Shown in pieces: positions 37,536-63,693 of a stretch of 64,000 nt of DNA. Both the position numbers and the translations under genes were made by a program. The stretch comes from Congeria kusceri. Its lineage: Eukaryota > Mollusca > Bivalvia > Myida > Dreissenidae. Below the pieces are notes generated by a model, which ran no database searches, was not told the DNA's origin, and saw only the letters and a list, made by a program, of their open reading frames with translations. Each line of letters opens with the position of its first letter. Position 1 is the stretch's first letter. Where the stretch lies: contig CM051034.1 of the NCBI GenBank assembly GCA_027627225.1, positions 7,912,058-7,976,057 of the forward strand, read 5' to 3'.

Positions 37536-37719
37536 ATGGACAAAATGGCATCAAAGACTAAAGGTGTTAAAGCTCCGAAAGTTACAGAAGAACAGCGAGT
37601 TCAAGAAAAAATGGAGGAACCACTTGATGAGCAAGAATTGGAATCGTTGTATGCCTGGGTCGACAGCATTCCATTGTCACGACCAAAACGGAATATCAGT
37701 AGAGATTTTGCAGATGGAG
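37536..37719 (+). CDS. SPEF1: SPEF1 coding exon 1 (start of CH domain)
   Basis: A Lys-rich leader is followed by EQELESLYAWVDSIPLSR and the PKRNISRDFADG motif, nearly identical to human SPEF1. It ends one base into the next codon, before a GTTATT donor (phase 1). Start is either 37536 or 37545; the latter has A at -3 and G at +4. Confidence 0.93.
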
Positions 37720-40700
37720 GTTATTATTATTCATTACATTTTCTTTATTTTTAACAGTTTGACACTCTTCTTTGTCCATTATGTTTTGTTAATTTTTAGG
37801 GATGGCAAAACTATTTGAATACCCGATTGAATGACCGTTATTCGAATAGTTAAAACGTTATTCGAATATTTGTATATTTGTATTGCTTTTTAAAACATTA
37901 ATTTATTGATTGTAGAAAGTAGTTGTCTTTTAACGTAAAAGGCTAAAAGCAGTATTTCCACAGTAGATACATAACATCGTGTTTCCAATAGATTATTCCC
38001 GTGTCATGTGTCAGACAAATAGATTGAATAAAGATTGAATATACGGGTCCGTGTCAGCGGTTAACTTCTAGTCGCCAGTAATACACAATTACAATATCAT
38101 TATGAAGCCATAACATTTAACAGGTAATTAAACATGAAAAGATTAACAAAACAAATAATTACTTAAGTGCGATCACACATTTGGCAGTCATTATAGCCAA
38201 GAAATGTTGCTAAACTTCGCCTATAAACATTAGGCTTATTGACACATTTCAAACTTGATAAGAAATATGAGCATTGTAGATTTTGCAAATACGCTTAATT
38301 AAAAACAACACTTAACATGGGATTTCAGTGGTTTATGCTTACTGTCATTAACGCATTCATATATATGATATTGCATTTTGTTAAAGGGACTTGTTCACAG
38401 ATTTTCGCATTTTTTGAAATTTGCCATGAAATTTCTTAACCAGATTACAGCATGGGAACTAAAAAGCTCAAGTATAATAACAAGACAAGTTTTTAAAAAC
38501 AAGAGGGCCATGATGGCCCAAAGCGCTCACCTGTGAACTGGTAGAGATGAAGACCATACTGTTGTGACAGGTTTGAAAATTAAGGTATCTGAACAATACG
38601 CAAAGGGGGATAGGGTCAATTTTGATTTAAAACATCTGTTAGTGCAATGGGCTAATTAAAGTATGAGTTGGGTAGTGGATGGGCGTTTTTTTGCTAATGG
38701 TTTTCATATCATTTTTCTCGATATTCTTACCTGACCATTTTTCATTTTGTCATTGAAAATGCTGGAAAATACAGAAACAGTAGATTTTTATGTATTTTTC
38801 GCAAACAGTTTTGGAGAACTAGTTGCAATGTGATCATTGCGATTGCTGTGCTATAAGGTAAAGTTTTGCTTTCTCTTTTATAATTTTTTGTCCAATGATT
38901 ATTAATGATGTTAATGCAGGCTCTGAAGACATCAATGTTGCATGTACAAATAACTGCATGCAAGTCTTGCAACTGTTGGAAATCAAATTTTATCAATCAA
39001 TTTTTATGGTCATGCAAAAACTGCGTAAGTTTGGTCAACATTTAATAAAAAATCATGCATGCAAGCCAATCATTGAAAACTTGTTGATGTTTTTTGTGTC
39101 GCCTGACTAGGCGACCTATTGGTGTTACTTATGTCGGTGACGGTTTTGGCGGCGGCAGCCCCTGTCGTTTGTCCGGAGCATAACTCTTAGACTATTAAAG
39201 CTATCAACATGAAACTTCATAGGTAGATATATCTCATGGAGGAGAAGTTCAGTACACAAGAACCGTTACTTTGCACCTCATACTTTTGGAGTTATTGCCC
39301 TTTGTTTATTTTCATCCTTAATTTTTGTCCGGAGCATAACTCTAATACTATGAAAGCTATCAACTTGAAACTTCATAGGTAGATAGATCTCATTGAGTTG
39401 AAGTACAGTGCACAAGAACCGTTACTCTGCACCTCATACTTTCGGAGTTATTGCCCTTTGTAAATTTTCATACTTATTTTTGTGTCGCATTTTTTGTTTT
39501 AATAAGTATTTTCTTTGCAATTAGCCAGAGTGCAGTGCTTTTGAAGATTTCAATAAATCTGTTAAACAAAATTTGAGCATTAACCTTAAGTGCTTCTTCA
39601 TTTGGATTCACGTAAGCTATCCGGTGTCAGGCGACACATCCGACTCGCAGAGTTCTAGTTTCCAAACACAAGTGGCAATAACAATAATGGTTTTTCTTGC
39701 CCGATCATGCTTATACTCTAATTCACCTGTAGTCTTACCTTCATAGACAAACTGTACACGATTGGTGAAGATTGGATGAAAAATGAAGTCTCTATCCTGA
39801 ATAATGTCCATTTTTGCATATTTTTTTTCACAAAAAAAGGACAATAACTCTGGTGTTTCTGGTCCGATCTTGCTTATATTCGACTTCACCTTTAATCTTA
39901 TGGTCATAGACAAACTGTGCAAGATTGGTGAAGATTGAATGAAAAATGAAGTCTGTATCCTGAATAATGTCCATTTTTGCATATTTTTTTTCACAAACAA
40001 AGGGCAATAACTCTAGTGTTTATGGTCGGATCTTGCTTATATTCGACTTCCACTGTAATCCCATGATAATAGACAAACTTTGCAAGATTGGTGTAGATTG
40101 GATGAAAAATGAAGTCTCTATCTTGAATAATGTCCATTTTTGTATATTTTTTTAATAAACAAATAACTCTGGTGTTTGAAACACGATTAATCCAATGTTT
40201 GGCGTCTGCTGAGATCTGATCGTCATACACAAACTGTGAAAGTTTGGTTAAGATTGGATGGAAAATAAAGTCTATGTTGGAAAAGGGCATTTTTGCACTT
40301 TTTTTGCATGAAAAAGGGGCAATAACTCTGGTGTTACTGGTGTGATCTGACCCAATAACAAACCCATCTGAGATTTTATGGTCATACACAAACTGCGAGT
40401 TAAGTAAAGATTGAATAAAAAATGTAGCTTTATTGCGGTAACGGTCCAAATTGTTGATGGCATACAGACGCCGGACAACGCCGGAGAGGTCCCCTATACT
40501 AATAGCTCACCGAGCGCTTCGTTCTCAGGTCAGCTAAAAACAAGATAATAAAAAACTTTGTCCCACAGGGGTTCGAACTCGGAAACTCTGGATTAAAAGG
40601 CTATCGCTTTAACAACTCGACCATTCCGACTTCTGTATTTCACCCTGCATTATTTACTTTATGTAAGCGTTCCACGTGATGTGAACAGAAACACTCCAAA

Positions 40701-43700
40701 TTATGCCATCATTTAGCGTTACAAACGCTTTATAATTTTATCAAATTCAACTGATGATTACTCATAAACAAATTGGTTTTTACAGTATATTTTTAGGTCC
40801 GTAGTGTTATTTTGCTCCCTTGTATACACTGCTATTATTTTTGCAATTGGTGACAAAAACTTGAAAAATTGTCCATTTGTCAATCTGTGAACAGGTCCCT
40901 TTAATGAAGATATGACGATAATGTGTACTAAAACTCTGTACCATTATTTACATGGTGTGGACTAGTCACTAGGTCACAAAGCTTGATGAAGTAAATATGA
41001 ATCTATGTGAATATTCGATTGAATGGAAAAGCAAATATTCAAATACCGATTTTCGCATTTCGCATTCGTTAGTTGAAACCTATTTCTTTTAGCTCGATTG
41101 CATCGAAAGCCTAAGGCTTATTGAGACACTTTCGAGTCCGTTTCCTGGGAAGAACCAGTATTTGGTGTCTTTGGGGGAGATCTTGAGTACGCTCCCACAG
41201 TGGGGATCGAACCCGGGACCTCCTGATCGCTAGGTGGACACCGTATCCACTACGCCACCGCAATAAATGGTATTTGTTGCCATCCCTATTAATTTTATAT
41301 CCTCCCCTTAATGGCCTTATCTAAAATCACGATGTAACTTGAGTCACACGCATATTTTTTCAGACCAGGTCTCTTGTAAAATAGCAAACATTTTGGCGTA
41401 ATAATATCAAATTATTCATAAAAATTACTGTAGCATTTTCTCTGTAAACTTTCCACTTGTATGGTTTAAACAGAAATTGGTTGTTGTTCTGTAAAATGAG
41501 GTAGGTGTAAGAAACATAATACCCGTTTACCGCAATTAAATCACCTTACATTGAGGATATAAAATAAACACTGTAGACTCGTAATCGTATAAAATTGTAA
41601 AAAATCTATATATATAACAACCTGTAAAAAACACACACAAAGCCACAGTATTTTGTTATGATCATTTAAATCATATGCATTGATATGTTTTTTTTATGTA
41701 ACAGAACATACTAGGTTATGTTTGTTGTTTTCCTGTAACATTTGTATTCACTTTTTAGAGAAGCAATTCAGTAAAAATGAATGTATAATGTTATGGTGCA
41801 CATTTTGTTGCATTGTAGTACCTAATTGTATTCTGACATCGTTTTATTTGTGTTTATAAATCTAGTGATGGTGTTAGAGGTAATAAAAAATAGATTTCCA
41901 AACTATGTTGGGGTGTGTATACCGGCTGCAAATACATTCCAACAGAAAAAAGACAACTGGCTGCAGTTAAACAGGTACAGTTAGGAGGAAAGTTGGCTGC
42001 ATTTCTCAGTGACAACGCATTGGAATGAACAATAATTGACCTACTACTTACAGATAGCTGTCCTTACGGAGTAGAAATGAAAGTGATTGCAAACTGTTAA
42101 GTCATTCGAAGTGTGTCATTCATAAAAACTGTCAACAGAAAACAATGAATCTGAGTGTTTAGTTTATATGCTTTAGCAAGGTTGTAGAAATGTTAAAATG
42201 CAGTGCAAATTCAGTTCAGACAACCCTGCTTTATTCCAGCTGTTTGATTTTTTCCATATTGTAAGCTCTTGAGAAAGTTATTTTGGTACCGTTTATAATC
42301 AAATTATAAAAATCTACCAGTCACTTTCATTTTGTAATGCATGGTTTTTGCAGTTTACTTGAAGCAGCAGTCAAGTGCCTCATTGATTATTTATAAATTC
42401 TAGAAATTCTAGACATATAAAAACTATAGTTATTTGCAGATCAGTGGACAATTATTTTGTCATCTTTCAGTGGGTGTGAATAACACATCAAAAAGTACAT
42501 GAAAATTATTGTTTACATTCAGTAAGAAATTACACATGATTTTTGTTATTGTTTATTGTCAGTTTATAAGAGATTGTACACCGTACATTTTAAGTACATG
42601 TATAACTTGTTGTTACATTATTTTCAGTTGATTGGAATCATAGAATGATGGCATTTGACTAATAACAATATACTACATTGTGTAACTGTAGTCTGCTAAA
42701 ATTCTGACATGCTTATCGCAAGACCTTGCTAAAGCTGTGCATTACTTGTAATTCAATATTGATCAACATTCATCATTTGGAAGAAAGGTTGCCATGTACA
42801 TGTAATGTCACGCCAATTGTGGTTCATTTCAATGTACAGATTAACGTTATATTTGCTTGGTTTCTTATTATTATTTCCTGCTATGCCTTGACTTCTTGGT
42901 GTGGCTAATTGTGAATATAGTGTAGTTTACATTTCTAACTAATTGTACTTATATCCTGAGCACACATATCTGCTACCTAGGACCAGATTGGCTCAGAAAA
43001 TGTTGCGTTCATACTCCTAGGATTGGTAGATGACCTTTCTTGCTATGAATGTTGGTCAGATCTTGTTTTATCCACACAGGAATTATGTTGCTCTCTGCAT
43101 GATCCCACAAGAAGGATTAGTGCTTTTTTAAGAAGTGATTTTCTATAAAACAAACAAACATGTGCTTGCTTTGGTTTACTGTACTACAGTTATTTAGTTG
43201 AACTATTATTCATTTAGGAAACATCCATTTTTATAATCATGCTTTCTAACATTGTAAATTGCAATTAAATTCTGTAGATTAGAATGGACATAAATTTACT
43301 ACCAAAGCATTAACATATAGTTCAGTCGATGATATGTCATTATTCATGTGCTTTTGTTTCTTCTTAGATAGTGAATGAAAGTGATCTCATTGGCAAACTA
43401 ATATTCTTGGTTTGTTTTGTTTTGTAGGAAATTGTATGAAAGCTAAAATGCTTACAGCTGCAAAGAAAACAATATGCCTTTTATGTCACATTCTGGTCTT
43501 TTGGTCTAATATAACATTGTTCAAGGCTGTAGATAGTCCGTTCATTATTACCATGCCACATGTTTTACTTTCAGTCCTTGTGGCAGAAATAATGGCTCAT
43601 TTCTTTCCACAAATTGTGGATAAGCATAACTATTCCCCAGCAAATAATAGTAAAGGGAAGCAACTCAATTGGGAGACGCTCAACAGGTACAGTAGAAGTG

Positions 43701-46700
43701 TTTGGACAAGGGAGATCACTGGGGGAAATGCTTGTGCTTTCATGTTCTTGTCATGCTCTAGTCATAACAGTTATAACAGAAGTATTCATAAAGTTTCATC
43801 AAAATTCTGTGTCATATTGCCATTGCACAAAATTTTTAATTTTGTGAGGCACATCAAAGACACATTATAGCGTAGGGTTTTGAACTGATGATTTTCTAAG
43901 CTGGGAAATGGTGAATTTGTTTGTGAACTGTTTTGGTTTATTGAAAGCATTATGAATACTGATCTGGGTCCATATTTCTACAGCATCTTGTATTTGTTAA
44001 GCTGAAGATATACTTAAAATGTAGTGTTTTGTTTGACATTTAGTGCTGTTGTTGTACAGCATGTTAGAAACAAGAAAGGGTCTGAATACAAAATGAAGTT
44101 ATTTGACCAATAAATCTATCAGTTCATTAACTAAAAATATCAAGCCTAACAAAAAATACTGGTGCTATATGAAATGTCCCCAGATCATCCTATATATCTT
44201 ATCATCTTCCATCATCAGGGTTGTCATTATCAATGGACACAAGCGATTTTTATCGAAATCTAAGCGATTTAGCTTGTGATATTACCTTTTGCAATTTATA
44301 AGTTCCTGAAAAAAAAGAAAGATTTTCTCATGATTTTAAACGATGAATTTGATTGGCAATCGATTAATAATGGCAACCCTGCATCATCCCTCATCTTCGG
44401 ACACCCATGGGTTCATATCTGGCTACACTGCACTTGTTTGTGGAATATTTCACTACCATTTCACAGTTTTTGCATTGCAGTTTAATAATCTGATTTGACA
44501 GGTTTACTGCATTCTGCACTTTGAATATTATCTATTGCAATCATATTTGTAAATAGGTGTAAAAATAAAGTTTAAACATATAGTGCCAATTATGTAAACT
44601 TGAATTTATGGGATGATGTTTGCCATCACTAAGTATTGGTAAGGAAGTATCCAGTAAAGTTCTGAGGATAACAGGGCCAGATTTGGACAACCTTGCATGG
44701 CCAGCATCATCATGTTTATGTTTGTTAACTGTCCAAATCTGAGCCGTTATCACAGTCTTTCACACCATGTAATTATTGTTCATTACTCAATTGATGTGAC
44801 TGTACTACGGAAAGATCTGGATCACAAACACGGGGCGGGCATGTGGTTACTTTTTGACCAACAGGGCGGGCATGTGGTTACTTTTTGATCAACAGGGCAG
44901 GCATGTGGTTACTTTTTGATCAACGGGGCGGGCATGTGGTTACTTTTTTATCAACAGGGCGGGCATGTGGTTACTTTTTGATCAACGGGGCGGGCATGTG
45001 GTTACTTTTTGATCAACGGGGCGTGCATGTGGTTACTTTTTGATCAACGGGGCGGGCATGTGGTTACTTTTTGATCAACGGGGCGGGCATGTGGTTACTT
45101 TTTGATCAACGGGGCAGGCATGTGGTTACTTTTTGATCAACGGGGCGGGCATGTGGTTACTTTTTGATCAACGGGGCGGGCATGTGGTTACTTTTTGATC
45201 AACGGGGCGGGCATGTGGTGACTTTGATCAACGGGGCGGGCATGTGGTTACTTTTTGATCAACGGGACGGGCATGTGGTGACTTTTTGATCAACGGGGCG
45301 GGCATGTGGTGACTTTTTTGTCAACGGGGCGGGCATGTGGTGACTTTTTGATCAACGGGGCGGGCATGTGGTTACTTTTTGATCAACGGGGCGGGCATGT
45401 GGTTACTTTTTGATCAACGGGGCGGGCATGTGGTTACTTTTTGATCAACGGGGCGGGCATGTGGTTACTTTTTGATCACCGGGGCGGGCATGTGGTTACT
45501 TTTTGATCAACGGGGCGGGCATGTGTTTTTGATCAACGGGGCGGGCATGTGGTTACTTTTTGATCAACGGGGCGGGCATGTGGTTACTTTTTGGTCAACG
45601 GGGCGGGCATGTGGTTACTTTTTGATCAACGGGGCGGGCATGTGGTTACTTTTTGATCAACGGGGCGGGCATGTGGTTACTTTTTGATCAACGGGGCGGG
45701 CATGTGGTTACTTTTTGATCAACGGGGCGGGCATGTGGTTACTTTTTGATCACTTATGGTTATGTTTTGATTTGAACAGGAATTTTGCAGAATGCACAAA
45801 AGCAAGATAAAGTACATGTACCTGCACTTAATGTTCTCAATCATTTTGCAGAACATACAAAAGCAAGATAAAGTACATGTACCTGCACTAAATATCTTAA
45901 ATCTAAAGCATAAAAAAAGAAAACTATGGAGTTGATATGCCACTCCTTGTTGCCAAAAACATTTCTGTCATTTTCTCCTGATGTATTTGTTTGGACGCAC
46001 AATGTCTCTTTCTGATCCTGGATCTTTCCATCCTGCATAGCGTGCTTGCAGTCAGGCCATGCCATTAGTATATCACTGTGTGATAGGACATATTTCTTCT
46101 TCGGCCAAAAACAGTTCCGTTTCTGGTCTCCTGCCCAGAAAAATAAGGGTCGGTAGGTAGGGATTTTTTTTTTATGACGAGAGAATGGTTTGTGTTGTAC
46201 ACAGTAACAGTCTTTTTCAGTCTTTATTATTTGTGGACCAAAAATATGTAGAGTTGGCAGCAAAAGTATAGGGTCGGTCGGGAGACCAGAAACGGGACTA
46301 TTTTTTGGGGGGGCCTACCAACATCTCTGTCTGTACTGTTGTTTGATTCCTGTCCACTCATTGCACATTCATTGAATATGCAACCAAATGCATGAATATG
46401 TCAAAACAAGTTAAAACACTGGGAAAGTTATCTCGACTGGTATATAAGAGTATGGATGTAAACATTTGGAGCAGTAATACACAATAATGTATTTATGTAT
46501 TTACTGTTTATATTCTACAAGTCTATGTTGTGTTCTGCAAGTGTCTAAAAATATCCCAGATTCAAAAGTTTGTAAAATGATTCTGGTATATGCCTAAATT
46601 AACATCTGGTGAGGAGTCAGTTTTGGAAGAAAGGTCCCTGTTTTCTCATATAAACATGACTGATCAATATTTAAAGGAGCACATTGAATACATATCGACA

Positions 46701-49700
46701 TATATTAAAACAAGATAATTTCCTGTTTTTGACGACACATCATGTACCTTTCCTTCATGCGATTTTACTACTACCACTAATTTTCTCACGTCTGCAAAAG
46801 TGTCATCAATGACCACTGTTTATATAATACAATAATATATATTTGTCAAATGTTCATAGAGACAAAACCATCATATTTAATAAAGCTTTAATATCAGTTC
46901 TCTGTGAATGAACTTAATTTTAGCAAATGTTATTGTCTACCTTATGTTAATAATTTGTGTTGAATAAAATGTCTTAACATACCAGTTTTTTAGCTTTCTT
47001 CGTCATTGCGTATTAAATGAATCAACAACTTGTCACACACACGCATGAACCATCTCCTATGTAGACTATGTTAGTGCGGTGTAACCTATGCACATGTCCC
47101 CCACATGTGTCGGGCTCTCCTATCTGTGCTCTGTATCTTGTCTAGGAATCCAAAGCAAAGCACATGTTTATTAGTATTCGCTACGGTGTGTGAAAATCTG
47201 GAAGTCGGAGTTTAAATTACGGACAAAATGTCCCGGAACAGTCTACAAAATGCAGAGTGGCTCAGATTTTTAGCTGTTAGAATTAGTCGTAAAAAGGCTT
47301 AAAATTGAATGCCATGAAAAATTCAGTCTTTTTTGTTAATTTTCAGTGCTAGTTGCTGAGATAATAAAACATTTTTTTCCTGATGATGGGCTAGTTGAAT
47401 TACACAACTATACAGCTGCAAATGCTTCAAATAAAAAGAAGGAAAATTGGTATTATCTTAACAGGTAAAACTAAAGCCTTTAAATTCAGCCTATTAGATT
47501 TGAAATTGTTTATTACGAAAAAAAACATAGGTAGTGCGTGGCTTAAAATATTGTTTGCATGGTGTGTGACAGGCTTGGTAGAGTTTTGTTTAATTGAAAT
47601 TTAATATTGCTTCCATTAGAGAATGGTAGGCTTAACCAAACAATGTCACGGGTAATTGATAACCATGAAGAAGATCATTTTCAATATGTGCTCTGTATAA
47701 ACCCTGTGTATTAATGCCTCAAATCTGTCTTGGTCTTTTGTTTTTGCTCTGCTGAACCACTAATTAATATTTGATTTGCACAATGTTTTATGACATCTTT
47801 GTTTGTGTTATTGACATATTAACATTTAATACATCTTTAATCATTTAACTATTAATTTTTTTTGTTTCTATTTGTAGTTATAAAAAATAGTTTTCATAAA
47901 ATCTATATCTTACTTATACTTAAAAATAATCAAAGTAAATCATGAAATATGTAAACAATTTATTTAAAGTTATATATTAATTAGTCAACAGAACATTGTA
48001 TTGCATTTTTACCACTTCTTTTCTTGACATAAAATATAAAGTTAATCACTTGTAAATGGTCTTATTTCTGGTGTCCACGGATTGCAGGCGTGTGTTTTCT
48101 CGTTTGAACTTTGAACTGGCCGAAGATGTGATAAACGACCTTGTAGGAGGCAAGCCCGGAATGATTGAGAAAGTGCTGCTCATGCTGCAAGTGAAAATCA
48201 AGCGGGCAGAGTACGCGCGGGGTCGACAGAACGACAAACCAGAGGCCGACCAGCACCAGAGTAGTAAGAAATCTAACTTCTACTTTCTAGCTATTCAAGT
48301 ATGGCGAGCGATATGAATATGCTTAGGTGAAATTCATCTGTTCAAGTTTGCGAAGCATGTGTGCAGAAATATGCAAGATTGCGTTGAATAACCTGTATCA
48401 AAGAAAATTAGCTATTATGTCTTAGCCATGATTGCTTAGTTTCGTTTCTTTCAATGACTCGCAGAAAATATTGACTTTTTGTGTCGCCTGTCCCCTTTCG
48501 CTTGTCCAGAGCATAACTCTTAGACTATTAAAGCTATCAACATGAAACTTCATAGGTAGATATATCTCTTTGAGGGGAAGTGCAGTGCACAAGAACCGTT
48601 ACTCTGCATCACATACTTTTGGAGTTATTGCCCTTTGTTTATTTTCATACTTCATTTTTGTCCGGAGCATAACTCTATGACTATGAAAGCTATCAACTTG
48701 AAACTTCATAGGTAGATGGATCTCATTGAGGAAAAGTGCATAGTGAAAGAACCATTACTCTGCACCTCTTACTTTCTGAGTTATTGCCCTTTGTAAATTT
48801 TCATACTTATTTTTGTGTCACATTTTTTGTTTTAATAAGTCTTTTCTTTGCAATTAGCCAGATTGCAGTGCTTTTGAAGATTTCAATAAATCTGTTTTAT
48901 AAAATAAATAAATTTGAGCATTAACCTTAAGTGCTTCTTCATTTGGATTCACATAAGCTATCAGGTGTCAGGCGACACATCCGACTTGCGGAGTTCTAGT
49001 TGATTCAATATTTTTCAAAAAATGTACTTTACACTTGCACTGTTATTGTCTTATAAATAGTATTCACTATGTTGCCATATTTTCCACGATTTCTCAAGGC
49101 CTGGTCCCCATGCCCAAGATTTTAAAAATATTATGATTTGTACCTGGTTGTAGCAATGCTATTAACCTCCATTGGGTTTGCAGTGTCTCCAGGCCGCAAG
49201 GACAGCAAGCTGATCAAGGTGGGCATGGAGGACACGAAGGGTAGCCGCTTTATCAAGACCAAACAGTATGTATACCACACATCTCACTATCAAGACCAAA
49301 CAGTACGTATACACCATGTCCCACTATCAAACACCAACCAGTACACATCTCACTATCCAACACCAAACAGTGCGTATACCACACATCTCACTATCCAACA
49401 TCAAACAGTATGTATACCACACATCTCACTATCCAACACCAAACAGTACGTACACCACATCTCACTATCCAACACCAGACAGTACGTATACCACACATCT
49501 CACTATCCAACACCAAACAGTATGTATACCACACATCTCACTATCCAACACCAAACAGTATGTATACCACACATCTCACTATCAAACACCAAAAACAGTA
49601 CGTATACCACACATCTCACTATCCAACACCAAACAGTATGTATACCACACATCTCACTATCCAACACCAAACAGTATGTATACCACACATCTCACTATCC

Positions 49701-52700
49701 AACACCAAACAGTGCGTATACCACACATCTCACTATCCAACACCAAACAGTATGTATACCACACATCTCACTATCCAACACCAAACAGTACGTACACCAC
49801 ATCTCACTATCCAACACCAAACAGTACGTATACCACACATCTCACTATCAAGACAAAACAGTATGTATACCACACATCTCAATATCCAACACCAAACAGT
49901 ACGTATACCACACATCTCACTATCCTACACCAAACAGTGCGTAGACCACACATCTCACTATCCAACACCAAACAGTACATAGACCACACATCTCACTATC
50001 AAGACCAAACAGTACATACACCACACATTTCACTATCAAGACCAAACAGTACATACACCACACATTTCACTATAAGGCCAAACAGTACATACACCACACA
50101 TTTCACTATCATGACCAAACAGTACATACACCACACATTTCACTATCAAGACCAAACAGTACATACACCACACATTTCACTATCAAGACCAAACAGTACA
50201 CCACACATTTCACTATCAAGACCAAACAGTACATACACCACACATCTCACTATCAAGACCAAACAGTACATACACCACACATTTCACTATCAAGACCAAA
50301 CAGTATGTTCACCACAGAGATCACTGCTAGGCTCTGTTCTGTGACACAGCTTCCAGGGGGGGCACTGTTAATAAAACTGTTAAGAAGTTCTTTTCATTTG
50401 TCATAATTTAACTTCATAACAGTGGACTAAGGATGCAGAGATACAGATTTTTTGAGGCAATAAAATATACCAGGGCTTGCATTAAAGGAAGTCTGGCAGT
50501 ATGGTAATTTGCTCTCAGTTATGCACCTATCAATATTTTCCCCCGGGGGGGGGGGAGCGGCGGGCATATACAGGACTTTAGACTGAAAGCGATTCCCAAC
50601 AGGCCGGACTTTGACACACCGAATAATTCCGGGTCCCGGGAAATAGACTTAGTCGGATTTTAGATCCTGCTAATATTGAGGCCATAAGCATCTCCCACTG
50701 TGGGGATTTAGACAAAAATGCTTGGATCCAGGGATGGGAATTAGACCCCAAAAAATAAAATTTCTCAAATTCCCCTGGGTCAGCCCACCGCTCCCCCTGG
50801 GGGAAAATATTGATAGGTGCATTACTGTCACAGGACTTCCAAAATTGCAACCATGGAAGTCCCGTGTAAGGATGAAAGTCAGGAAAACAACTTACTATGT
50901 TATATCTAAAAGTATACACTTTTGTTTTGAATTAATTGGCCTATACTCACCTATTGACAAAAAACTGGCCTTAAACAGAGCCTGAATTTTATACTGACTT
51001 CTCCATTCTTGAATCCTAAATTAACAAGACATATTGACATTTAGAAATATAAAGGACTGTTCTTATCAAATAAAGGACTGTTCTTATCAAATAAAGGACT
51101 GTTCTTATAAAATAAGGGACTGTTCTTATCAAATAAAGGACTGTTCTTATCATATAAAGGACTGTTCTTGTCAAGCAAAGGACTGTTTTTATCAAATAAA
51201 GGACTGTTCTTATCATATAAAGGACTGTTCTTATCAAATAAAGGACTGTTCTTATCAAATAAAGGACTGTTCTTATCAAATAAAGGACTGTATGAATACA
51301 AGCTTAGCCATGAGCTCTCACCTTAGGTCAGTCTCCACGGTGAGCTGTCACCTTAGGTCAGTCTCCACGGTGAGCTGTCACCTTAGGTCTGTCTCCACGG
51401 TGAGCTGTCACCTTAGGTCTGTCTCCACGGTGAGCTGTTACCTTAGGTCTGTCTCCACGGTGAGCTGTCACCTTAGGTCAGTCTCCACTGTGAGCTGTCA
51501 CCTTAGGCCAGTCTCCACGGTGACCTGTCACCTTAGGTCAGTCTCCACGGTGAGCTTTCACCTTAGGTCAGTCTCCACGGTGAGCTGTCACCTTAGGCCA
51601 GTCTCCACGGTGAGCTGTCACCTTAGGCCAGTCTCCACAGTGAGCTGTCACCTTAGGTCAGTCTCCACGGTGAGCTGTCACCTTAGGTCAATATCCACTA
51701 TGAGCTGTCACCTTAGGTCAGTCTCCACGGTGAGCTGTCACCTTAGGCCAGTCTCCACGGTTCTTGACCACTTATTCCAAGCTGTGAAGATTTTCTCATT
51801 AAATATTTTTTTTTAAAGAAATGTCAGTTAATTTATAAATCCTTCTTTGTACTGGTCAAACTATATTCTTGTGTGTTCAAACAGAGAGATAGACAAACTG
51901 TAAGTGCCTGTATGTTCATATTTTCCTTCGTATATTCATCACTCAGTCTGTCTCACTTTGTCTTGGGGGACATTTTGCCTACCAGGTTTCTCTGCATTTT
52001 GTAACAACCCAACCCTGAATTAAATTCTAGCCAATCTAACAAAATTTTTCTCCTCTTTGTTATGAACTTGTATAGAATCATTTTCTACTAGGTTCAACAA
52101 TATCTTGGATTCCTAACATTCTGCTGTTACTCATGTGCATACAGTAGGCCACTAGATTTCATGTTGTTGTACCTGTAATTTTGTCAATATGTAAACAACT
52201 ATTGTTTATTTTCTTATTTATCTCTGGAACATGTTTCCCATCACCAAAAACATTATTTCCCTGTGTATTATTAAAATTTGGGTAAAATAAAATTTTGGTT
52301 CAAACTGAATGATTTAAATTGTAAGCCATTTTGTTTGAGATTTGTTATTCTCCAGTTTTCAATGTTTGATAACTCTAAATGTCCAGTGTCAATGGATGCC
52401 ACAATCTTTCCCAATAGTTGTGAAAAAATTAGCTAAATAGATCACATTAAACAAATTCACATCTTGCTACACGAATGTGTGACTGTATGCTTCTTTTCTT
52501 TGCTCTTCAAATTAAATTTTATTAATTTCAGTCAACTGAACTGCCTTATAATACATTCCTGTTCTTTTTAAAATGTCATGCCCATTTCTTACCTTGGCTT
52601 ATAATTTTTTTATTGAGTAAATAATATTACAATATGTTCTCTAAATGACACAAACAAGTAGTCATCTGTAATAGTAACAATGTATATAATGATTACAACC

Positions 52701-58700: not shown

Positions 58701-61700
58701 CTCCGAAGTTAGTTAATTTATTTGGACTTGTTTGTCTGTGAAGGAGGCAAGGTTAGGGATATGACTGATCAGACCCTATATGTGATCGCTAATGTTTCAG
58801 GATTGACGACTACGGCCATATCATTACCCATCGTTACCTTGACAACAGGGGATGGAACTCTGGGTACTATACATGCACAAAGTGACAAATATACACATGT
58901 TCACGTCTTGGTAGCTACCTGGAATTAGTTCTAAACATATTGAACAAAAACTTTAAATGATCTACAATGTACATGTTTTCAAAATTTCAAGTTTTGCTTT
59001 TCTGTTCATAAGCAATATTATATAAGTAAGACAGAAAATGTATACAGGTTGGTAGTAATATAATTCCACACCACACTCATGCAGGTATTATTTCAATTTT
59101 CTGAATGTTTGTTTTTCTGGAATCAGCTTAAGCTAAATGTTACTGTAAAATTAATTAAAAATTAGAACCACTCACCGTATAAAGGTATTTCTGACTTGGC
59201 CCTAAGAAAGAAGCATGTGTTGCCATATAGCTGTCACAATAAAATATTTTGTAAGAAAATGTTAAAATTAAAAATATGCCTCATTTTCAAACATTTAGTT
59301 AAGTGTCTGGTAGTGTTTCAAGGTAGCTGCCAAGTGTTTGAGGTTGCAACATTGTCCTGTATGTTTGTTTGACTTGTCTGTTGGTGTTTGCTTTGGCAGT
59401 TGGTTGTCATTGTGTTACAGTAGTCGTTGTACAGCGTGTACAGTGTATGGCAGTGGTGTAGCTAGCTGTCCGGCATTCTTGGATGTCTCTGGGTTGTGCG
59501 TGAACTTACGTATGCAAATAATGGTTTAACTTTTCATCAAGTCCCCAATAAATTTTGATGGTTGGTCCTGAGATAAAGAAATCTGTTGTGTTCTTTTATT
59601 TTAAAAAAATTCCAAAACTGTACAAATGTATCGATGAAACAGATTGGCAGAATAAAATAACATAGTTTATAGCAAATAAATTTATGAAAATTATTTGTTA
59701 AAATCTCATTAATATAAAGGTTTCATTTGAGCGGATTTCAGCACAGTGTTTTCACATATGTATGTATTTTTGTTTCTGTATTTTATATTGTTAATAATGT
59801 TTTTTTCTTTTTTTTATAGCTCCAGTTTTATAATTTAAGTTTTGTAAATGATAAAACATTAACTAGCAGTGGTTATTTTAAATTATCTTTTATCACATGC
59901 TATACCTTGTTTTCTATGTAATACAACCATTACGAATATTTTTATTTTACACATGTGTAAGATAACATTTTGAGCGTTTTCATTCGTTACATATTTTTTG
60001 AATGACCAATCGCATGACGTTATTTTGGTGAAATGACATCGTGAACATGAAATGACGTCAATGCAGTAAACAACTTATCGACATGCTTTGGTAAAATTAG
60101 AAGCATTTTTTTCGTTTAAAAGCATGTGATAAAAAAGATCTGACACTCGTCATTTCATATCATGTTATATTAAAATCGTCCAGGAAATTCGTTAGTAAGC
60201 TCGCCAAAGGCTCGCTTACTAACAAAATTTATTAAAATATGATATGAAATGACAACTCGTGTCAGATCCCATATTTCTTGTGAGTCTCATATTTGTGTTC
60301 ATGTTAACAAAACTCCCACTAGTTGAAAATTATATTTATGCATGTGTATTTGTATTGATATTATCTTCACAATACTTTTACATCACCACACAATTTTGAG
60401 CTGTGTGTAATGTATTCTATCTGTATTCATTTTATTTATTACTCCTTTAAAATTTCTTTTTATTCCAATAGATTGACGTACCTGTAAAACAGCACAAGTT
60501 TTAAGCTAAACCTTAGAGCTAAACAAACTGAACAAAGATTGTCACTTGTGTCAATCTAAACTGAACAAACAGGCTATTGAACATGTCAATGAAAAATATA
60601 TTCCAGGGGTGTTTGTGTGAACCAGAGGAATATAGTGGGAAAAAGCGTGCAGTTGCTGATTGCAGCTTATGCTGAGTGTTTCGTGGATATGTTGATAACT
60701 AAACTGTTTATGTGGAGCTTCATGCAGACTGTGTCGGGGTGCTGGCTGGGGTACTACCTGTTGAGAGCCGTGTGGGAGTTGTACACATGTTCATTTTATG
60801 TACTATGTTGTGGCTAGGATGGCAGTGTTATGAAGTTAATAATTCACATCAGTTTTCATTTTGTGAGAAACAAAATTAATGTTGTTGTGTACAATAATAT
60901 TGCAGAGAGTACAAAATATTACTCTTAATTTTACTAGTAAAAGGAATTGTTTGTGGAAATAATACTACATCGAAAACTCTTACAGGTAGTGGTAATAATT
61001 TTAGAGTATTACAATTACAAACATATTAATTGTTTTGCTCTCCATGAACAAGGCAGGATTTTCAGTCTGCAAACACCTGCCAGCCTAATGGCTGTGAACA
61101 TCATTTTATCTTACTGTCAAAACTATTACAGACTCCAAGATCAAAAACCTTCTCCCAGGAAAGCCGCCCCCACTACTGTGATACCCAAACGTCGACCTGG
61201 GCCGATAGGGGAGTCTGACCTGGTGCCGAGATACGTAGTGGAGGAGAAAGAACAGGAAGTCTTGACTCGTGATGAAACTATACAAGTAAGTGTTGGTTTG
61301 CCCAATTGTGACTAATCTCTCTTGACTTGTAATCTTTCAGAGTGGAGCATATGCCACCGAGGCACCGGCTCAAAGCGAATTTAGGGGAGATGGATATTGT
61401 CCCGCGGATCATGCTGGAAGAGCGCGAGCAGGAAGTGCTTGCTAAAGATGAGATGATTAAGGTCAGTGGCGGACACAGTCTCGTGCGCACCACTGTTTGT
61501 TGTATGCTAGCGTGGAGTGTTTGTAGCTGGCCGCCTTGTTTGCACCACTGTGTTTCTTACGCTAGCGTGGTGTGTTTGGTAAAGGCCTCAAGTCACTGAG
61601 ATCTGTGTGAGACTTATTTGGCTTCTTACTACTGTAGATGTTCTGCTGACACCAGCTTAGTTGTTTCTTCTGTTTGCAGTGTTACAGAAACTATTTGCTG

Positions 61701-63693
61701 TACAGTTTGCTGTACTGTTTGCCATAACACATGAGCTATGTGGTTTCCTGTTGCTGTGTCATGACTTCAAGATCAAAGATGGTTTGCGTCAAGCCTTCTG
61801 GAACAGACAGAACACCAAAAGCCTTGGGTTGTTTTTTTTCAAAGTTGATTTTGCTTTGCCATGCAAGCTACCAGTAGCTGTTTCTGTGTCACAATCGCTA
61901 GTTGGTGGCTCACACAAGTTAGTTGTGGTCCTGTTGCCATTTCACAGAAGCTATTTGCAGTTGCAGTTGTGGTCCTGTTGCCATTTCACAGAATTGCAAT
62001 TTGCCGGGCATCTAAAATAGAACGCTGTTAGCAACAGCCATAGCAACAGTGACTTTCAAACTGCGGCTAGCAGTTTGTAGCTGAAAATCGTGTTACACGC
62101 TTAGCACGTGAATAGTGTTTAAAAGCATCAATCTGTAATACTATATCTGAACAATGCAAATGCTAGAGCATAAATGAATTAGCATTCTATGGAAATAAAA
62201 ACAAATAGGACTTTCTTCATTAATAAAAAGAAAACAATATAACATCTTTGATAAATTAAAATAAAAAGAAAAGGCGCTGAAGTTTATTTACTTTCATTTT
62301 TGACAAAGACTTTAGTTCCGCTAACTTTCATTAAAATGTTGCCTCAGCCAACGTTTTTGCATAATTCTAATCCGTGTGCAGTGATGATTTTGAATAACAC
62401 TTTCGTAAATTATTACTTGATCTAGTAATTTTATTTTTTTGACAAAATAAGACGTTTGACGCGATCAGTTTGTCGAGTTAAATGACGTCGTAATTCATAT
62501 TCTTAGCAAACGGTTCCTTTCACCAAAATTCACCAAAATTATGATATTTATTTATTTATTTTCTATTTTAATTGTAGTAATTTATTACAAACGCGGCTGT
62601 TAAAAACACACATATCTATAAAAAAAGCACATACCTAACGCAAATGTGTTACAAATGATTGCACCTTTACAAATTAAAATTAGAATGAGGGCTCGATAAA
62701 CTTTCTAACGACGACGCTCATTTGCATATTTGAAATTTTATGCATTCTCATTGGCTGACTATTTAGCTCTTGTTAAACTGACTCCTCCTGCGTCAAGATT
62801 TTATTGATAATGGACACTTGGTGCATAAAGGCGAGTTTGTTCATTGCCGGTGGGCGTTCTTTGTCTTTAAAAAAAAACATGCATATGCAAGCGGAAATGG
62901 TTGCGCTCTAGAATCTGACACTGAATGTTATGGCGTCCTTTTCGTAAAAGCATGCGTCAAAATACGCCGAATTACAGAGAACTGTCCGTTTAAAGTCATT
63001 TTATAAGCGTCTTTTGAAAGTAAGATTTGTACACGCTATTAATACCCGTATTCTTTTTAAGGATTCGCACCCCGCATTTTCACACACAAATAAAATAAAA
63101 TATTGTTTTCTTTGGTCTGTAACATTTTTTGGGTCCGGCGATTTTGCTGGGTCGGTCGCGGGAGGGGAAACAAACAATATTTTATTTTAGGCCCTAAGTT
63201 GTAATTGCCTTTAGACATTTCTCCTGCCAATGGGTCACTGCTATAAAAGTCAAAGCTTCATGTTTAACTAACACTATTTGCTCATAGAATGCAACCTGTA
63301 ACCTTTGACATTGTGTTATTTGACTTGAACATATTAGTTTGAATGCACCTGGTCCATATGTTTTTGTAATTTAAATGTAATAATGTTTTAAAGAATGCAT
63401 TGTGTATTAATATATAAATGCACCTATTACATGATATATTTTGCTCTGTACTTTACACATACAAGTTTATTCCACAAATGTAAACATGCATGTACCAAAT
63501 TGTTCTAAACAGGAAACCATATCCATTACTAACATGTTGTACCCACTTATATGCCTACCTCAAGCTTTTGTATTTGTAGATTTTACAAGCCAAAATATCC
63601 CGATTAGAGCACTTGCTCCACTTAAAAGACATGCGCATAGATGACCTTCAAAATCGGGTCGAGGCGACACGCCCCACTGGCGTCAGGAGATGA
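37536..63693 (+). CDS. SPEF1: SPEF1/CLAMP: CH-domain ciliary microtubule protein with two clusters of alternative exons
   Basis: Join: 37536-37719, one of (41866-41974, 43575-43686, 47347-47464), 48088-48263, 49184-49265, 51885-51899, 53316-53339, 55009-55071, one of (61132-61285, 61341-61461), 63580-63693. Phases agree at every junction and the frame stays open from ATG to TGA, giving 295-309 aa depending on exon choice; the human protein is about 235 aa. The N-terminal CH domain holds the family motif SIPLSRPKRNISRDF, then V-L-V-A-E, H-N-Y and N-W-x-x-L-N-R. The C-terminal coil ends RLEHLLHLKDMRIDDL, close to the human end. SPEF1 binds and bundles microtubules and is needed for the central pair of motile cilia and flagella. 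The middle (exons 4-7) is not conserved with human and is probably a linker. A second ATG at 37545 has the better Kozak context and gives M-A-S-K, resembling the human M-A-S start. The gene assignment is firm; which alternative exons are expressed is inferred. Confidence 0.92.
38501..40540 (+). repeat. 'gggccatgatggccc' element, third nesting level
   Basis: Left end 'aagagggccatgatggccca'; right end 'aatagctcaccgagcgcttc' and 'tcaggtcagctaaaaa'. It has internal units with 'ttatggtcatagacaaactg' and 'caataactctggtgtt'. It is interrupted by a fourth element at 39096-39660. Confidence 0.78.
39096..39660 (+). mobile_element. 'gtgtcgcctga' TIR element, copy 1 (fourth nesting level)
   Basis: It starts 'gtgtcgcctgactaggcgac' and ends near 'tcaggcgacac', then 'gagttctagtt'. 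Inside are two direct repeats of 'ggagcataactct' with 'aacttcataggtagat'. About 565 bases. A second copy is at 48481-49001. Confidence 0.75.
40556..40632 (-). other. tRNA-like segment of a repeat
   Basis: The reverse strand reads 'gtcggaatggtcgagttgtt', then 'ccttttaatccagag' and a good B box 'gagttcgaacccc'. It is part of the TIR element 38391-40904, and its D-arm is degenerate, so it is not called a functional tRNA gene. Confidence 0.5.
41093..41284 (-). mobile_element. tRNA-headed SINE
   Basis: On the reverse strand, 'gcggtggcgtagtggatacg' (A box) and 'gtcccgggttcgatccccac' (B box) form a tRNA-like head at 41276-41208. A body follows, ending 'ctttcgatgcaatcgagct'. It is inserted at the right edge of the hAT-like shell. 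Confidence 0.72.
41297..41865. other. SPEF1 intron 1, unique part
   Basis: AT-rich sequence before exon 2a with nothing recognisable beyond the exon 2a acceptor. Confidence 0.5.
41866..41974 (+). CDS. SPEF1: SPEF1 exon 2a, alternative CH-domain exon (most diverged)
   Basis: 109 nt, phase 1 to 2, acceptor 'aaatctag', donor GTACAG. It encodes VMVLEVIKNRFPNYV, then PAANTFQQKKDNWLQLNR. It keeps the E-V-I-K, F-P, Q-Q-K and N-W-x-x-L-N-R landmarks but is one residue shorter and has lost the H-N-Y motif before P-A-N. The frame is open and both splice sites are intact, so it is not an obvious pseudo-exon. Confidence 0.8.
41975..43574. other. SPEF1 intron between exons 2a and 2b
   Basis: AT-rich and repeat-poor compared with the rest of the window. 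I looked for a further copy of exon 2 (N-W-x-x-L-N-R before a donor) and saw none. Confidence 0.5.
43575..43686 (+). CDS. SPEF1: SPEF1 exon 2b, alternative CH-domain exon
   Basis: 112 nt, phase 1 to 2, acceptor 'ttttactttcag', donor GTACAG. It encodes VLVAEIMAHFFPQIVDKH, then NYSPANNSKGKQLNWETLNR. It has the same length as the human segment and keeps V-L-V-A-E, F-F-P, H-N-Y, P-A-N and N-W-x-x-L-N-R. On length it is the best candidate for the ancestral form. Confidence 0.88.
43687..44831. other. SPEF1 intron between exons 2b and 2c, left part
   Basis: AT-rich sequence without a recognisable feature before the 31-bp satellite. Confidence 0.5.
44832..45750 (+). repeat. 31-bp GC-rich minisatellite, about 30 copies
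   Basis: Unit 'cggggcgggcatgtggttac' plus 'tttttgatcaa', very homogeneous, with single-unit variants (truncated 'gtgtttttgatc' near 45520). It is much more GC-rich than the intron around it and lies between alternative exons 2b and 2c. Confidence 0.93.
45751..47346. other. SPEF1 intron before exon 2c, with small repeats
   Basis: A direct duplication of about 60 bases ('aaaagcaagataaagtacat') lies at 45797 and 45858. An inverted repeat at about 46110-46305 pairs 'cgtttctggtctcctgccc' with 'cgggagaccagaaacg', a probable short TIR element. Nothing else recognised. Confidence 0.6.
47347..47464 (+). CDS. SPEF1: SPEF1 exon 2c, alternative CH-domain exon
   Basis: 118 nt, phase 1 to 2, acceptor 'gttaattttcag', donor GTAAAA. 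It encodes VLVAEIIKHFFPDDGLVELH, then NYTAANASNKKKENWYYLNR. It is two residues longer than 2b, through a D-D-G-like insertion after F-F-P, with H-N-Y and N-W-x-x-L-N-R kept. It is the copy nearest to exon 3. Confidence 0.88.
48088..48263 (+). CDS. SPEF1: SPEF1 coding exon 3 (end of CH domain)
   Basis: 176 nt, phase 2 to 1, acceptor 'cggattgcag', donor GTAAGA. It encodes RVFSRLNFELAEDVINDL and then GKPGMIEKVLLMLQVKIK, paralleling human K-V-L-x-R-L-N-F-S-V-P-x-D-V and A-P-G-V-V-E-L-V-L. It ends in a basic and polar stretch beyond the CH domain. Confidence 0.92.
48481..49001 (+). mobile_element. 'gtgtcgcctg' TIR element, copy 2
   Basis: It starts 'gtgtcgcctgtcccctttcg' and ends 'tcaggcgacacatccgactt', then 'gcggagttctagtt'. 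Very similar to 39096-39660 but missing some sequence after the left end. It lies in SPEF1 intron 3, ending about 180 bases before exon 4. Confidence 0.78.
49184..49265 (+). CDS. SPEF1: SPEF1 coding exon 4; its 3' end seeds a satellite
   Basis: 82 nt, phase 1 to 2, acceptor 'gggtttgcag', donor GTATGT. It encodes SPGRKDSKLIKVGMEDTK and ends RFIKTK plus two bases. It is GC-rich relative to its flanks. The donor is chosen because it keeps the frame with the two microexons and exon 7. The terminal exon bases and the donor are repeated in the array at 49266-50310. Confidence 0.8.
49266..50310 (+). repeat. 38-bp minisatellite made from the exon-4 end and splice donor
   Basis: About 28 units. The first downstream unit repeats 'tatcaagaccaaaca' from the end of exon 4 exactly, followed by GTACGT in place of the real GTATGT. 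Later units drift to 'tccaacaccaaaca' with GTATGT, GTACGT or GTGCGT, and at the right end to 'gaccaaaca' with GTACAT. The exon frame stays open into the array as far as 49944, so read-through would add a Tyr/His/Thr-rich tail. Long ORFs here are repeat-derived. Confidence 0.9.
50521..50822. mobile_element. Short TIR/foldback element with G-rich ends
   Basis: The left end 'atgcacctatcaatattttc' followed by a C/G tract is matched in inverted orientation by 'gaaaatattgataggtgcat'. The inverted arms are about 35 bases. No ORF. Located between exon 4 and microexon 5 of SPEF1. Confidence 0.75.
51045..51295 (+). repeat. 21-bp minisatellite, about 12 copies
   Basis: Unit 'aaaggactgttcttatcaaa' plus t, with minor variants. 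Being a multiple of three, it gives spurious long frames on both strands. Confidence 0.92.
51301..51765 (+). repeat. 30-bp minisatellite, about 15 copies, donor-like motifs in each unit
   Basis: Unit 'gagctgtcaccttaggtcag' plus 'tctccacggt'. Every unit contains CGGTGAGC and AGGTCAGTC, both of which resemble 5' splice sites on the SPEF1 strand. It follows directly on the 21-bp array and lies about 120 bases before microexon 5. Confidence 0.92.
51885..51899 (+). CDS. SPEF1: SPEF1 microexon 5 (15 nt)
   Basis: A 15-nt segment between acceptor 'gttcaaacag' and a near-consensus GTAAGT donor. Read in the phase set by exon 4 it gives Q-E-I-D-K and the first two bases of the next codon. Being a multiple of three, it can be included or skipped without changing frame. 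The call rests on splice sites and frame, not homology. Confidence 0.55.
51900..53315. other. SPEF1 intron between microexons
   Basis: AT-rich intron sequence; no repeat or further exon recognised. Confidence 0.5.
53316..53339 (+). CDS. SPEF1: SPEF1 microexon 6 (24 nt)
   Basis: A 24-nt segment between acceptor 'cttgtctcacag' and a consensus GTGAGT donor. Following microexon 5 it reads S-I-H-N-M-Q-N in the same phase; spliced directly to exon 4 it also stays open. No homology support. Confidence 0.55.
53340..54381. other. SPEF1 intron after microexon 6
   Basis: AT-rich sequence; a 102-codon open frame at 53560-53868 has no recognisable domain and no splice-site support. Confidence 0.5.
54382..54652 (+). 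repeat. 34-bp minisatellite, about 8 copies
   Basis: Unit 'agctgtgtagattatctccc' plus 'ctggactggacact'. It lies in the intron before SPEF1 exon 7. Confidence 0.92.
55009..55071 (+). CDS. SPEF1: SPEF1 coding exon 7
   Basis: 63 nt, phase 2 to 2, acceptor 'gtttgttgtag', donor GTATTC. It encodes DTDLKSGGKKSVTFEDNPSR. Its phases link exon 4 or the microexons to either copy of exon 8. A polar linker of no known fold. Confidence 0.72.
55072..55712. other. SPEF1 intron after exon 7
   Basis: No recognisable feature before the large interspersed repeat. A 93-codon reverse frame at 55135-55416 shows no domain. Confidence 0.5.
55713..57910 (-). repeat. 'gggccaaaaggccctaggtc' family element, reverse orientation, with insertion
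   Basis: It begins 'tttttagctcacctgagcac' and 'aacgtgctcatgctgagc', and ends 'ggtgagcgacctagggcctt' and 'ttggccctctt', so it is inverted relative to 15326-16386 and 29532-31147. The usual units ('gaacactctagaagtcac', 'cccaatcatcatgaaacttg') are broken at about 55981-56659 by unrelated sequence. Confidence 0.82.
55981..56659. mobile_element. Insertion inside the repeat, ending in a foldback
   Basis: Repeat sequence stops after 'ctagaagtcgcattgta' and resumes at 'tgcccaatcaacatgaaact'. Within the insert, 56493-56637 is a large inverted repeat: 'gttgattattgcggtaataa' pairs with 'ttattaccgcaataaccaac', enclosing 'ccgatgc'/'gcatcgg' and 'aaaccac'/'gtggttt'. Confidence 0.7.
57911..60135. other. 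SPEF1 intron 7, no exon seen
   Basis: AT-rich sequence with a short imperfect 'catcaagggtcaaggtca' repeat at about 58220-58310. Small open frames at 58722 and 59338 lack domains and clear phase-2 splice borders. Confidence 0.5.
60136..60268. repeat. Foldback repeat of about 133 bases
   Basis: 'gatctgacactcgtcatttc' at the left is inverted as 'gaaatgacaactcgtgtcag' plus atc at the right. The centre is a second palindrome, 'gttagtaagctcgcc' aaa 'ggctcgcttactaac'. The whole could form one long hairpin. Confidence 0.82.
61132..61285 (+). CDS. SPEF1: SPEF1 exon 8A, alternative coiled-coil exon
   Basis: 154 nt, phase 2 to 0, acceptor 'aactattacag', donor GTAAGT. A Pro/Lys-rich start (QDQKPSPRKAAPTTVIPKRR) leads into VPRYVVEEKEQEVLTRDETI, which matches human I-A-E-K-E-Q-E-L-L-A-S-Q-E-T-V at the start of the C-terminal coil. 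Confidence 0.9.
61341..61461 (+). CDS. SPEF1: SPEF1 exon 8B, alternative coiled-coil exon
   Basis: 121 nt, phase 2 to 0, acceptor 'aatctttcag', donor GTCAGT. It reads VEHMPPRHRLKANLGEMD, then IVPRIMLEEREQEVLAKDEM, clearly a duplicate of exon 8A: D-x-V-P-R, E-E-x-E-Q-E-V-L and D-E-x-I are shared. It starts only 56 nt after exon 8A ends and is 11 codons shorter, with a different leader. Confidence 0.88.
61462..63579. other. Last SPEF1 intron
   Basis: A direct duplication 'gttgtggtcctgttgccatt' lies at 61922 and 61966, and an inverted pair near 63095-63185 ('aaataaaatattgttt' and 'aaacaatattttattt') marks a probable small TIR element. No third copy of exon 8 was seen. Confidence 0.55.
63580..63693 (+). 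CDS. SPEF1: SPEF1 terminal coding exon 9 with stop
   Basis: Acceptor 'tttgtatttgtag', phase 0. It encodes ILQAKISRLEHLLHLKDM, then RIDDLQNRVEATRPTGVRR and TGA at 63691-63693. This matches human V-L-Q-M-K-V-R-R-L-E-H-L-L-Q-L-K-N-V-R-I-E-D-L. No AATAAA is evident before the window ends at 64000, so the 3' UTR is probably cut off. Confidence 0.92.
   Translation: MLQAKISRLEHLLHLKDMRIDDLQNRVEATRPTGVRR

What the first reader, a model, noticed from the sequence alone, without database searches (positions are those of the whole stretch)
41866..47464. Three mutually exclusive versions of a SPEF1 CH-domain exon
Exons 2a, 2b and 2c each encode the same stretch of the CH domain, from V-(L/M)-V to N-W-x-x-L-N-R, with 37, 38 and 40 residues. 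All have intact AG and GT borders, open frames and the same phases (1 in, 2 out). Joining two copies (2a-2b, 2a-2c or 2b-2c) puts a stop into the second copy. Skipping all three gives a stop six codons into exon 3. Only one copy at a time makes a protein. To my knowledge SPEF1 is a plain single-copy CH protein elsewhere. A switchable microtubule-binding domain in a ciliary central-pair protein would be new, and could let one gene serve gill, sperm and other cilia differently.
Basis: partly seen in the sequence, partly recalled or inferred. Interest (0 to 1): 0.92.

Follow-up and report, generated by a model that had tools for sequence, protein, structure and literature searches.

The report
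Swappable microtubule-gripping segment in SPEF1
In DNA that likely comes from a Dreissena mussel, the gene for the cilia protein SPEF1 carries three alternative copies of one exon of its microtubule-gripping domain that cannot be read together; two of them recur in separate predicted SPEF1 isoforms of other bivalves, so one gene would likely make clamps with different grips for the central microtubules of cilia, while the third copy may be decaying.

Summary
The sequence claims hold. Exons 2a (41866-41974), 2b (43575-43686) and 2c (47347-47464) are in-frame, AG/GT-bordered homologues of one stretch of the SPEF1 CH domain; joining any two, or skipping all, gives a premature stop. 2b and 2c are well supported: predicted D. 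polymorpha isoforms carry 2b (38/38 residues identical) or 2c (35/40), and the same choice with unchanged flanks appears in 10 SPEF1 genes of 9 named species (8 bivalves, 1 nemertean). A bivalve SPEF1 paralogue with many isoforms shows one exon 2 only. 2a is doubtful: no relative was found, and it lacks a histidine kept in 84 of 84 other versions, one of the proposed tubulin contacts at the microtubule seam. The exon encodes helix 3, the loop with that histidine and most of helix 4, with 4 of 9 proposed tubulin contacts. Most likely one gene makes SPEF1 with alternative alpha-tubulin-facing surfaces and alternative coil approaches. Tissue use and binding differences are untested here. My searches of an open-access library listed no printed account.

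The parts
37545..37719 (+). SPEF1 exon 1, coding part (a second possible ATG lies at 37536); constant; holds R25/R28/R32-equivalents (Tetrahymena numbering)
   Evidence: mapping from the alignment and contacts
41866..41974 (+). exon 2a, 37 residues; no histidine; status doubtful
43575..43686 (+). exon 2b, 38 residues; identical to the D. polymorpha version
47347..47464 (+). exon 2c, 40 residues; class shared with Mya, Mercenaria, Ruditapes, Mytilus
48088..48260 (+). exon 3, end of CH domain (constant); the donor could also lie 3 nt later
49184..49265 (+). exon 4, linker
58801..58863 (+). frame-neutral cassette exon (IDDYGHIITHRYLDNRGWNS..)
61132..61285 (+). exon 5a, approach to the coiled coil, phase 2 in and 0 out
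61286..61340 (+). 55-nt intron between 5a and 5b, with a branch-point-like TGACTAAT (by eye) about 30 nt from its 5' end
   Evidence: threshold from PMC7969005 passages
61341..61461 (+). exon 5b, alternative to 5a, same phases
63580..63693 (+). terminal exon, coiled coil and stop

Best explanation
This is a SPEF1 gene, likely of a Dreissena mussel, whose exon 2 exists in three tandem copies that cannot be read together, of which 2b and 2c are likely both used, one per transcript, so that one gene is predicted to make SPEF1 with two different alpha-tubulin-facing surfaces. Shown from sequence: exons 1 and 3 are single, and exon 2 replaces the stretch from helix 3 through the HNY loop into helix 4. 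Shown in relatives' records: predicted isoforms with identical flanks carry one version or the other. Inferred: the choice changes how the CH domain reads the microtubule seam (4 of 9 proposed tubulin contacts lie in exon 2), while the beta-tubulin side, mostly in exon 1, stays; the second pair 5a/5b changes the approach to the coiled coil and is likely kept exclusive by a 55-nt intron too short to splice. The regulator of the 2b/2c choice is unknown; double inclusion or skipping would give frameshifted transcripts, likely removed by nonsense-mediated decay. 2a is either a pseudo-exon in decay (my lean) or a rare variant without the seam-facing histidine.
For: Reading frames and borders. Two exon-2 versions between identical flanks in 10 genes of 9 named species. 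D. polymorpha: 4 representatives (standing for 8 member sequences) carry 2b (1) or 2c (3). No protein of 160 shows the exon-2 end motif twice. Paralogue with 20 listed representatives in 4 species has one exon-2 version per species. 2b is unchanged between window and D. polymorpha (38 of 38) and 2c 35 of 40. Exon 2 covers helix 3 to helix 4 in models of both D. polymorpha forms, whose best structural matches are SPEF1 chains. Contacts from PMC11642885 passages, mapped.
Against: No RNA from this species was available; relatives' isoforms are database predictions whose reads I did not see. Only the best 120 of 523 and 120 of 1456 hits were listed, as representatives of 90% clusters. The 2b class is weakly supported as one group (46/78) and the exon tree rests on 38 columns. 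One Mya model (P0005) contains both 5a and 5b, against exclusivity of that pair. Introns between 2a, 2b and 2c are 1600 and 3660 nt, so no steric block applies there, and a repeat scan showed no convincing RNA-pairing elements. No binding difference has been measured.
Confidence: 0.75

Rival explanations
1. All three copies are functional, and 2a is a specialised seam-blind form: without the histidine it would keep the exon-1 contacts to beta-tubulin but lose one alpha-tubulin contact, so it would bind elsewhere on the lattice or compete with the other forms.
For: 2a has an open frame and intact splice borders, CH_2 match 84.7 bits, and keeps conserved columns better than variable ones (10 of 15 against 6 of 23, one-sided P 0.016).
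Against: No relative found (weak test); 84 of 84 other distinct versions keep the histidine; the four listed D. polymorpha representatives lack 2a, though 90% clustering could hide it; simulated neutral decay to a similar loss leaves the frame intact in about 12-15% of runs, so an open frame is weak evidence.
Confidence: 0.2
2. Only one copy is used in this species; the others are relics.
For: No RNA from this species in hand; 2a shows signs of decay.
Against: Both 2b and 2c match D. polymorpha isoforms closely and keep 15 of 15 conserved columns; both classes persist in distant bivalves.
Confidence: 0.04
3. Assembly or paralogue artefact: the copies belong to different genes or haplotypes stitched together.
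For: D. polymorpha has a second SPEF1 gene on another contig.
Against: That paralogue has a different exon 2 and different flanks; the window's other exons match one D. polymorpha gene; the same exon choice occurs in independent assemblies of other species.
Confidence: 0.01

Closest known systems
SPEF1/CLAMP, seam-binding CH protein of the ciliary central pair (human 2ee7, 9ntm; Tetrahymena 9nw3)
   Same: CH_2 domain, 51% identical to human SPEF1 over the CH domain in the D. polymorpha models, basic exon-1 residues, C-terminal coil
   Different: Exon 2 of the CH domain and the coil-approach exon exist in alternative copies; I recall no such switch in human, mouse or Tetrahymena SPEF1 and none was listed
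Tandem duplicated exon substitutions (mutually exclusive homologous exons), e.g. the 236 human events of PMC9741552 (abstract and passages)
   Same: Adjacent homologous exons, one used per product, mostly conservative changes that keep structural residues (fits 2b and 2c, not 2a)
   Different: In a ciliary seam-binding protein, with the swap inside the proposed tubulin interface; SPEF1 is not mentioned in that main text (0 occurrences; supplement not seen)
OGDH exons 4a/4b and alpha-tropomyosin: exclusivity by a branch point too close to the 5' splice site (PMC7969005 passages)
   Same: 5a/5b: 55-nt intron, below the about 50-nt 5' splice site to branch point threshold if the branch point lies where I read it
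   Different: Not applicable to 2a/2b/2c (introns 1600 and 3660 nt); branch point not mapped
Multi-cluster exon-choice genes such as Drosophila Mhc and Dscam (recalled, not tested)
   Same: More than one exclusive cluster in one gene
   Different: Few copies per cluster; a ciliary microtubule protein

Membership tests
SPEF1 | CH_2 domain above Pfam cut-off | tested here: met
   113 (2b), 105.1 (2c), 84.7 bits (2a), cut-off 27
SPEF1 | SPEF1 is the closest protein with a solved structure | tested here: met
   2ee7 first for all three forms, then 9ntm and 9nw3
SPEF1 | C-terminal coiled coil | tested here: met
   terminal exon identical to D. polymorpha over 37 residues; long C-terminal helix in models of the D. 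polymorpha proteins
SPEF1 | Seam-facing histidine (H55 of Tetrahymena SPEF1A) | tested here: inconclusive
   met in 2b and 2c, not met in 2a; kept in 84 of 84 other distinct versions
SPEF1 | Binds the microtubule seam | not testable with these tools
   needs protein and microtubules
Mutually exclusive tandem-duplicated exons (exon 2) | Adjacent homologous exons with equal phases whose joint use breaks the frame | tested here: met
Mutually exclusive tandem-duplicated exons (exon 2) | One copy per transcript | tested here: inconclusive
   in relatives' predicted isoforms none of 160 proteins shows the exon-end motif twice; no RNA from this species
Mutually exclusive tandem-duplicated exons (exon 2) | Alternative copies conserved between species | tested here: inconclusive
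   met for 2b and 2c; no relative found for 2a
Steric (short-intron) exclusive splicing | Intervening intron too short for joint splicing: 5a/5b | tested here: inconclusive
   intron is 55 nt; branch point read by eye, not mapped; the threshold comes from other animals
Steric (short-intron) exclusive splicing | Intervening intron too short for joint splicing: 2a/2b/2c | tested here: not met
   1600 and 3660 nt, from the coordinates

The most novel reading that the evidence does not exclude
Bivalve SPEF1 is a combinatorial seam reader: separate exon switches in the CH domain (2a/2b/2c), the coil approach (5a/5b) and, in some clams, the last coil exon let one gene build a different central-pair clamp for each cilium type (gill, sperm, larval), with 2a as a seam-blind form that lost the key histidine.
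Probability: 0.15. Interest if true: 0.85.

Novelty: new variant of a known kind. Interest (0 to 1): 0.62.

Why it matters
SPEF1 stabilises central-pair microtubules by gripping their seam. A natural set of CH domains that differ only in the alpha-tubulin-facing piece would give a ready panel to learn which residues read the seam, and would make testable whether different cilia of one animal use different central-pair clamps. It also points to an old exon switch in a ciliary gene that work on human, mouse and Tetrahymena SPEF1 would not reveal.

Tried and rejected
Fourth exon-2 copy: none in a six-frame profile scan of the window. RNA-structure control of exon 2: repeats of 37720-48087 showed minisatellites and short arms that may be chance, no convincing docking/selector set; not pursued. 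Orthologue of 2a: none found, but that search needs shared 5-residue words and returns 90% cluster representatives; in the exon tree 2a sits on a long branch (0.67) with no sure home. Coupling of the switches: of 38 listed representatives from D. polymorpha, Mya, Mercenaria and Ruditapes, 2b occurs with 5a (7) or with both 5a and 5b in one model (1), never with 5b alone, and 2c occurs with 5a (10) or 5b (20); clustering may hide the missing combination, so I do not claim it. Of 16 flank groups with more than one exon-2 sequence among 73, 9 pair versions within one named species' own rows and one (Mytilus) mixes species but holds both versions of M. galloprovincialis, giving 10; I left out 2 that pair a named species with an unnamed contig (C. 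angulata gene A, C. virginica gene B) and 4 that look like species or allele differences. dN/dS against D. polymorpha could not be computed (no D. polymorpha DNA in hand). The search of the window's own genome did not complete.
Full report
WHAT IS THERE. The window holds a SPEF1 gene on the + strand, coding from 37545 to 63693. Exon 1 ends at 37719; three homologous exons follow at 41866-41974, 43575-43686 and 47347-47464; exon 3 starts at 48088. All three alternative exons have AG/GT borders, length 1 mod 3, and fit the same phases. Any two together, all three, or none give a premature stop; each alone is open. A profile of 63 distinct exon-2 segments from relatives finds these three well above anything else in the window: 82.9, 73.0 and 31.5 bits against 8.8 for the next.

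WHOSE GENE. The best-scoring relatives are D. polymorpha sperm flagellar protein 1-like isoforms, 91% identical over exon 1 and 93% over exon 3. So the window is likely from another Dreissena; that it is the quagga mussel is my guess. With these proteins I placed exon 4 (49184-49265), a frame-neutral cassette (58801-58863) and the terminal exon (63580-63693).

A SECOND SWITCH. Using both shifts the frame. They are separated by only 55 nt, with a branch-point-like TGACTAAT (read by eye) about 30 nt from the 5' splice site, below the about 50-nt steric threshold cited for exclusive splicing of OGDH exons in PMC7969005 (passages). Listed D. polymorpha isoforms carry 5a or 5b, and two proteins from unnamed contigs with identical flanks (P0014, P0026) differ in the same way. 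All 12 combinations of exon-2 copy, exon-5 copy and cassette read through to the same C-terminus. Against exclusivity, one Mya gene model (P0005) contains both 5a and 5b; I read it as a prediction error, unproven. In Mya, Mercenaria and Ruditapes the last coil exon also occurs in two versions.

RELATIVES. With identical flanks on both sides, two exon-2 versions occur within one named species in 10 genes of 9 species: D. polymorpha, Mya arenaria, Mercenaria mercenaria, Ruditapes philippinarum, Mytilus galloprovincialis, Crassostrea virginica, Ostrea edulis (two genes), Saccostrea cucullata and the nemertean Lineus longissimus. Two further genes rest partly on unnamed contigs. These counts come from the best 120 of 523 and 120 of 1456 hits, each a representative of a 90% cluster, so absence elsewhere means little. 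Among pulmonate snails, Physella and Bradybaena share one version (87% identical) and Biomphalaria and Lymnaea another (92%), while versions across the two pairs are 58-68% alike and flanks 89-94% throughout; this suggests a switch there too, not shown within one species. The 40-residue 2c class joins Dreissena, Mya, Mercenaria, Ruditapes and Mytilus in one branch with moderate support (89/79; Solemya's 38-residue version falls inside), so it likely predates their split; the 2b class is weakly supported (46/78) (38 columns only).

CONTROLS. A second SPEF1 gene in D. polymorpha, Mya, Mercenaria and Ruditapes is listed with 20 representatives (5, 7, 2, 6), rich in linker variants, yet with one exon-2 version per species. 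None of 160 proteins shows the exon-2 end motif twice. Both speak against an annotation habit. The isoforms are database predictions and I have not seen their reads. Some unnamed short contigs (for example 1872 and 970 nt, P0052 and P0054) encode whole proteins with different versions, which would fit mRNA; that is inference.

WHAT THE SWAP WOULD DO. A preprint on the Tetrahymena ciliary tip (PMC11642885; passages) proposes nine tubulin contacts of SPEF1A: R25, K28, R32 and S62 to beta-tubulin, and H55, Y68, T72, R76 and K80 to alpha-tubulin; it counts the alpha-tubulin residue facing H55 (Q342) among those that mark the seam. By the alignments, exon 1 carries the R25/K28/R32 positions, exon 3 those of R76/K80, and exon 2 those of H55, S62, Y68 and T72. 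The four exon-2 positions read H/N/L/T in 2b, H/A/E/Y in 2c and T/D/Q after a missing His in 2a. Among 84 other versions the last three positions vary freely, so only the histidine looks strictly kept; this weakens any residue-by-residue reading. Models of the D. polymorpha 2c and 2b isoforms place exon 2 in helix 3, the HNY loop and most of helix 4, with high confidence over the CH domain (10-residue blocks of 85-97 pLDDT); both match 9nw3, 9ntm and 2ee7 best. So exon choice would rewrite most of the alpha-tubulin-facing side while the exon-1 contacts stay. That this changes binding is inferred.

THE STATUS OF 2a. No homologue was found (a weak test). Among 84 distinct other versions the histidine is kept in 84; 2a keeps 10 of 15 conserved columns where 2b and 2c keep 15. 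It still keeps conserved columns better than variable ones (10 of 15 against 6 of 23, one-sided P 0.016), so it was likely once under selection. Neutral drift to a similar loss leaves an intact frame in about 12-15% of simulated runs. I lean towards decay, with a seam-blind variant as the alternative.

LITERATURE. Searches for SPEF1 with mutually exclusive; SPEF1 with isoform, calponin homology and microtubule; mutually exclusive exon with bivalve; sperm flagellar protein 1 with alternative splicing; tandem exon duplication with mutually exclusive and mollusc; mutually exclusive exon with axoneme; and SPEF1 with exon and oyster listed no paper that announces this; I saw the listings, and passages of a few papers. 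Subscription papers are mostly not covered. A study of SPEF1 in ciliary evolution (PMC12979858, passages) uses one mussel SPEF1 accession and does not contain the word isoform. The isoform records themselves are public.

VERDICT. A real, conserved exon choice in a seam-binding ciliary protein, with two well supported versions rather than three, plus a second frame-exclusive pair in the same gene. The kind of switch is known; its place in SPEF1, inside the proposed tubulin interface, appears undescribed as far as these searches reach.

Noticed in passing
61132-61461: Second duplicated, frame-exclusive exon pair 5a/5b in the same gene, separated by 55 nt.
   Followed up: yes
relatives: P0016/P0042 (Mya), P0012/P0031 (Mercenaria), P0015/P0030 (Ruditapes): The last coiled-coil exon of SPEF1 also exists in two versions in these clams; the window ends 307 nt after the known one, so a second copy could lie beyond it.
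   Followed up: partly
relatives P0001-P0045 (38 rows of four heterodont species): 2b is never listed with 5b alone, while 2c occurs with either 5a or 5b; possible coupling of distant exons, or an effect of 90% clustering.
   Followed up: partly
P0127 (Physella), P0149 (Bradybaena) against P0108, P0082, P0110: Pulmonate snails show two classes of exon 2 across species with near-identical flanks, suggesting an exon choice there too.
   Followed up: partly
P0136, P0139, P0143-P0145: D. polymorpha has a second SPEF1 gene on another contig with one exon-2 version and many linker isoforms.
   Followed up: partly
44698-45889: Minisatellite of about 31-nt units inside the intron between 2b and 2c.
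   Followed up: no
17815-21700, 49138-50344, 51034-51816: Long ORFs made of short repeats, evidently tandem-repeat DNA rather than genes; the last two lie in SPEF1 introns.
   Followed up: no
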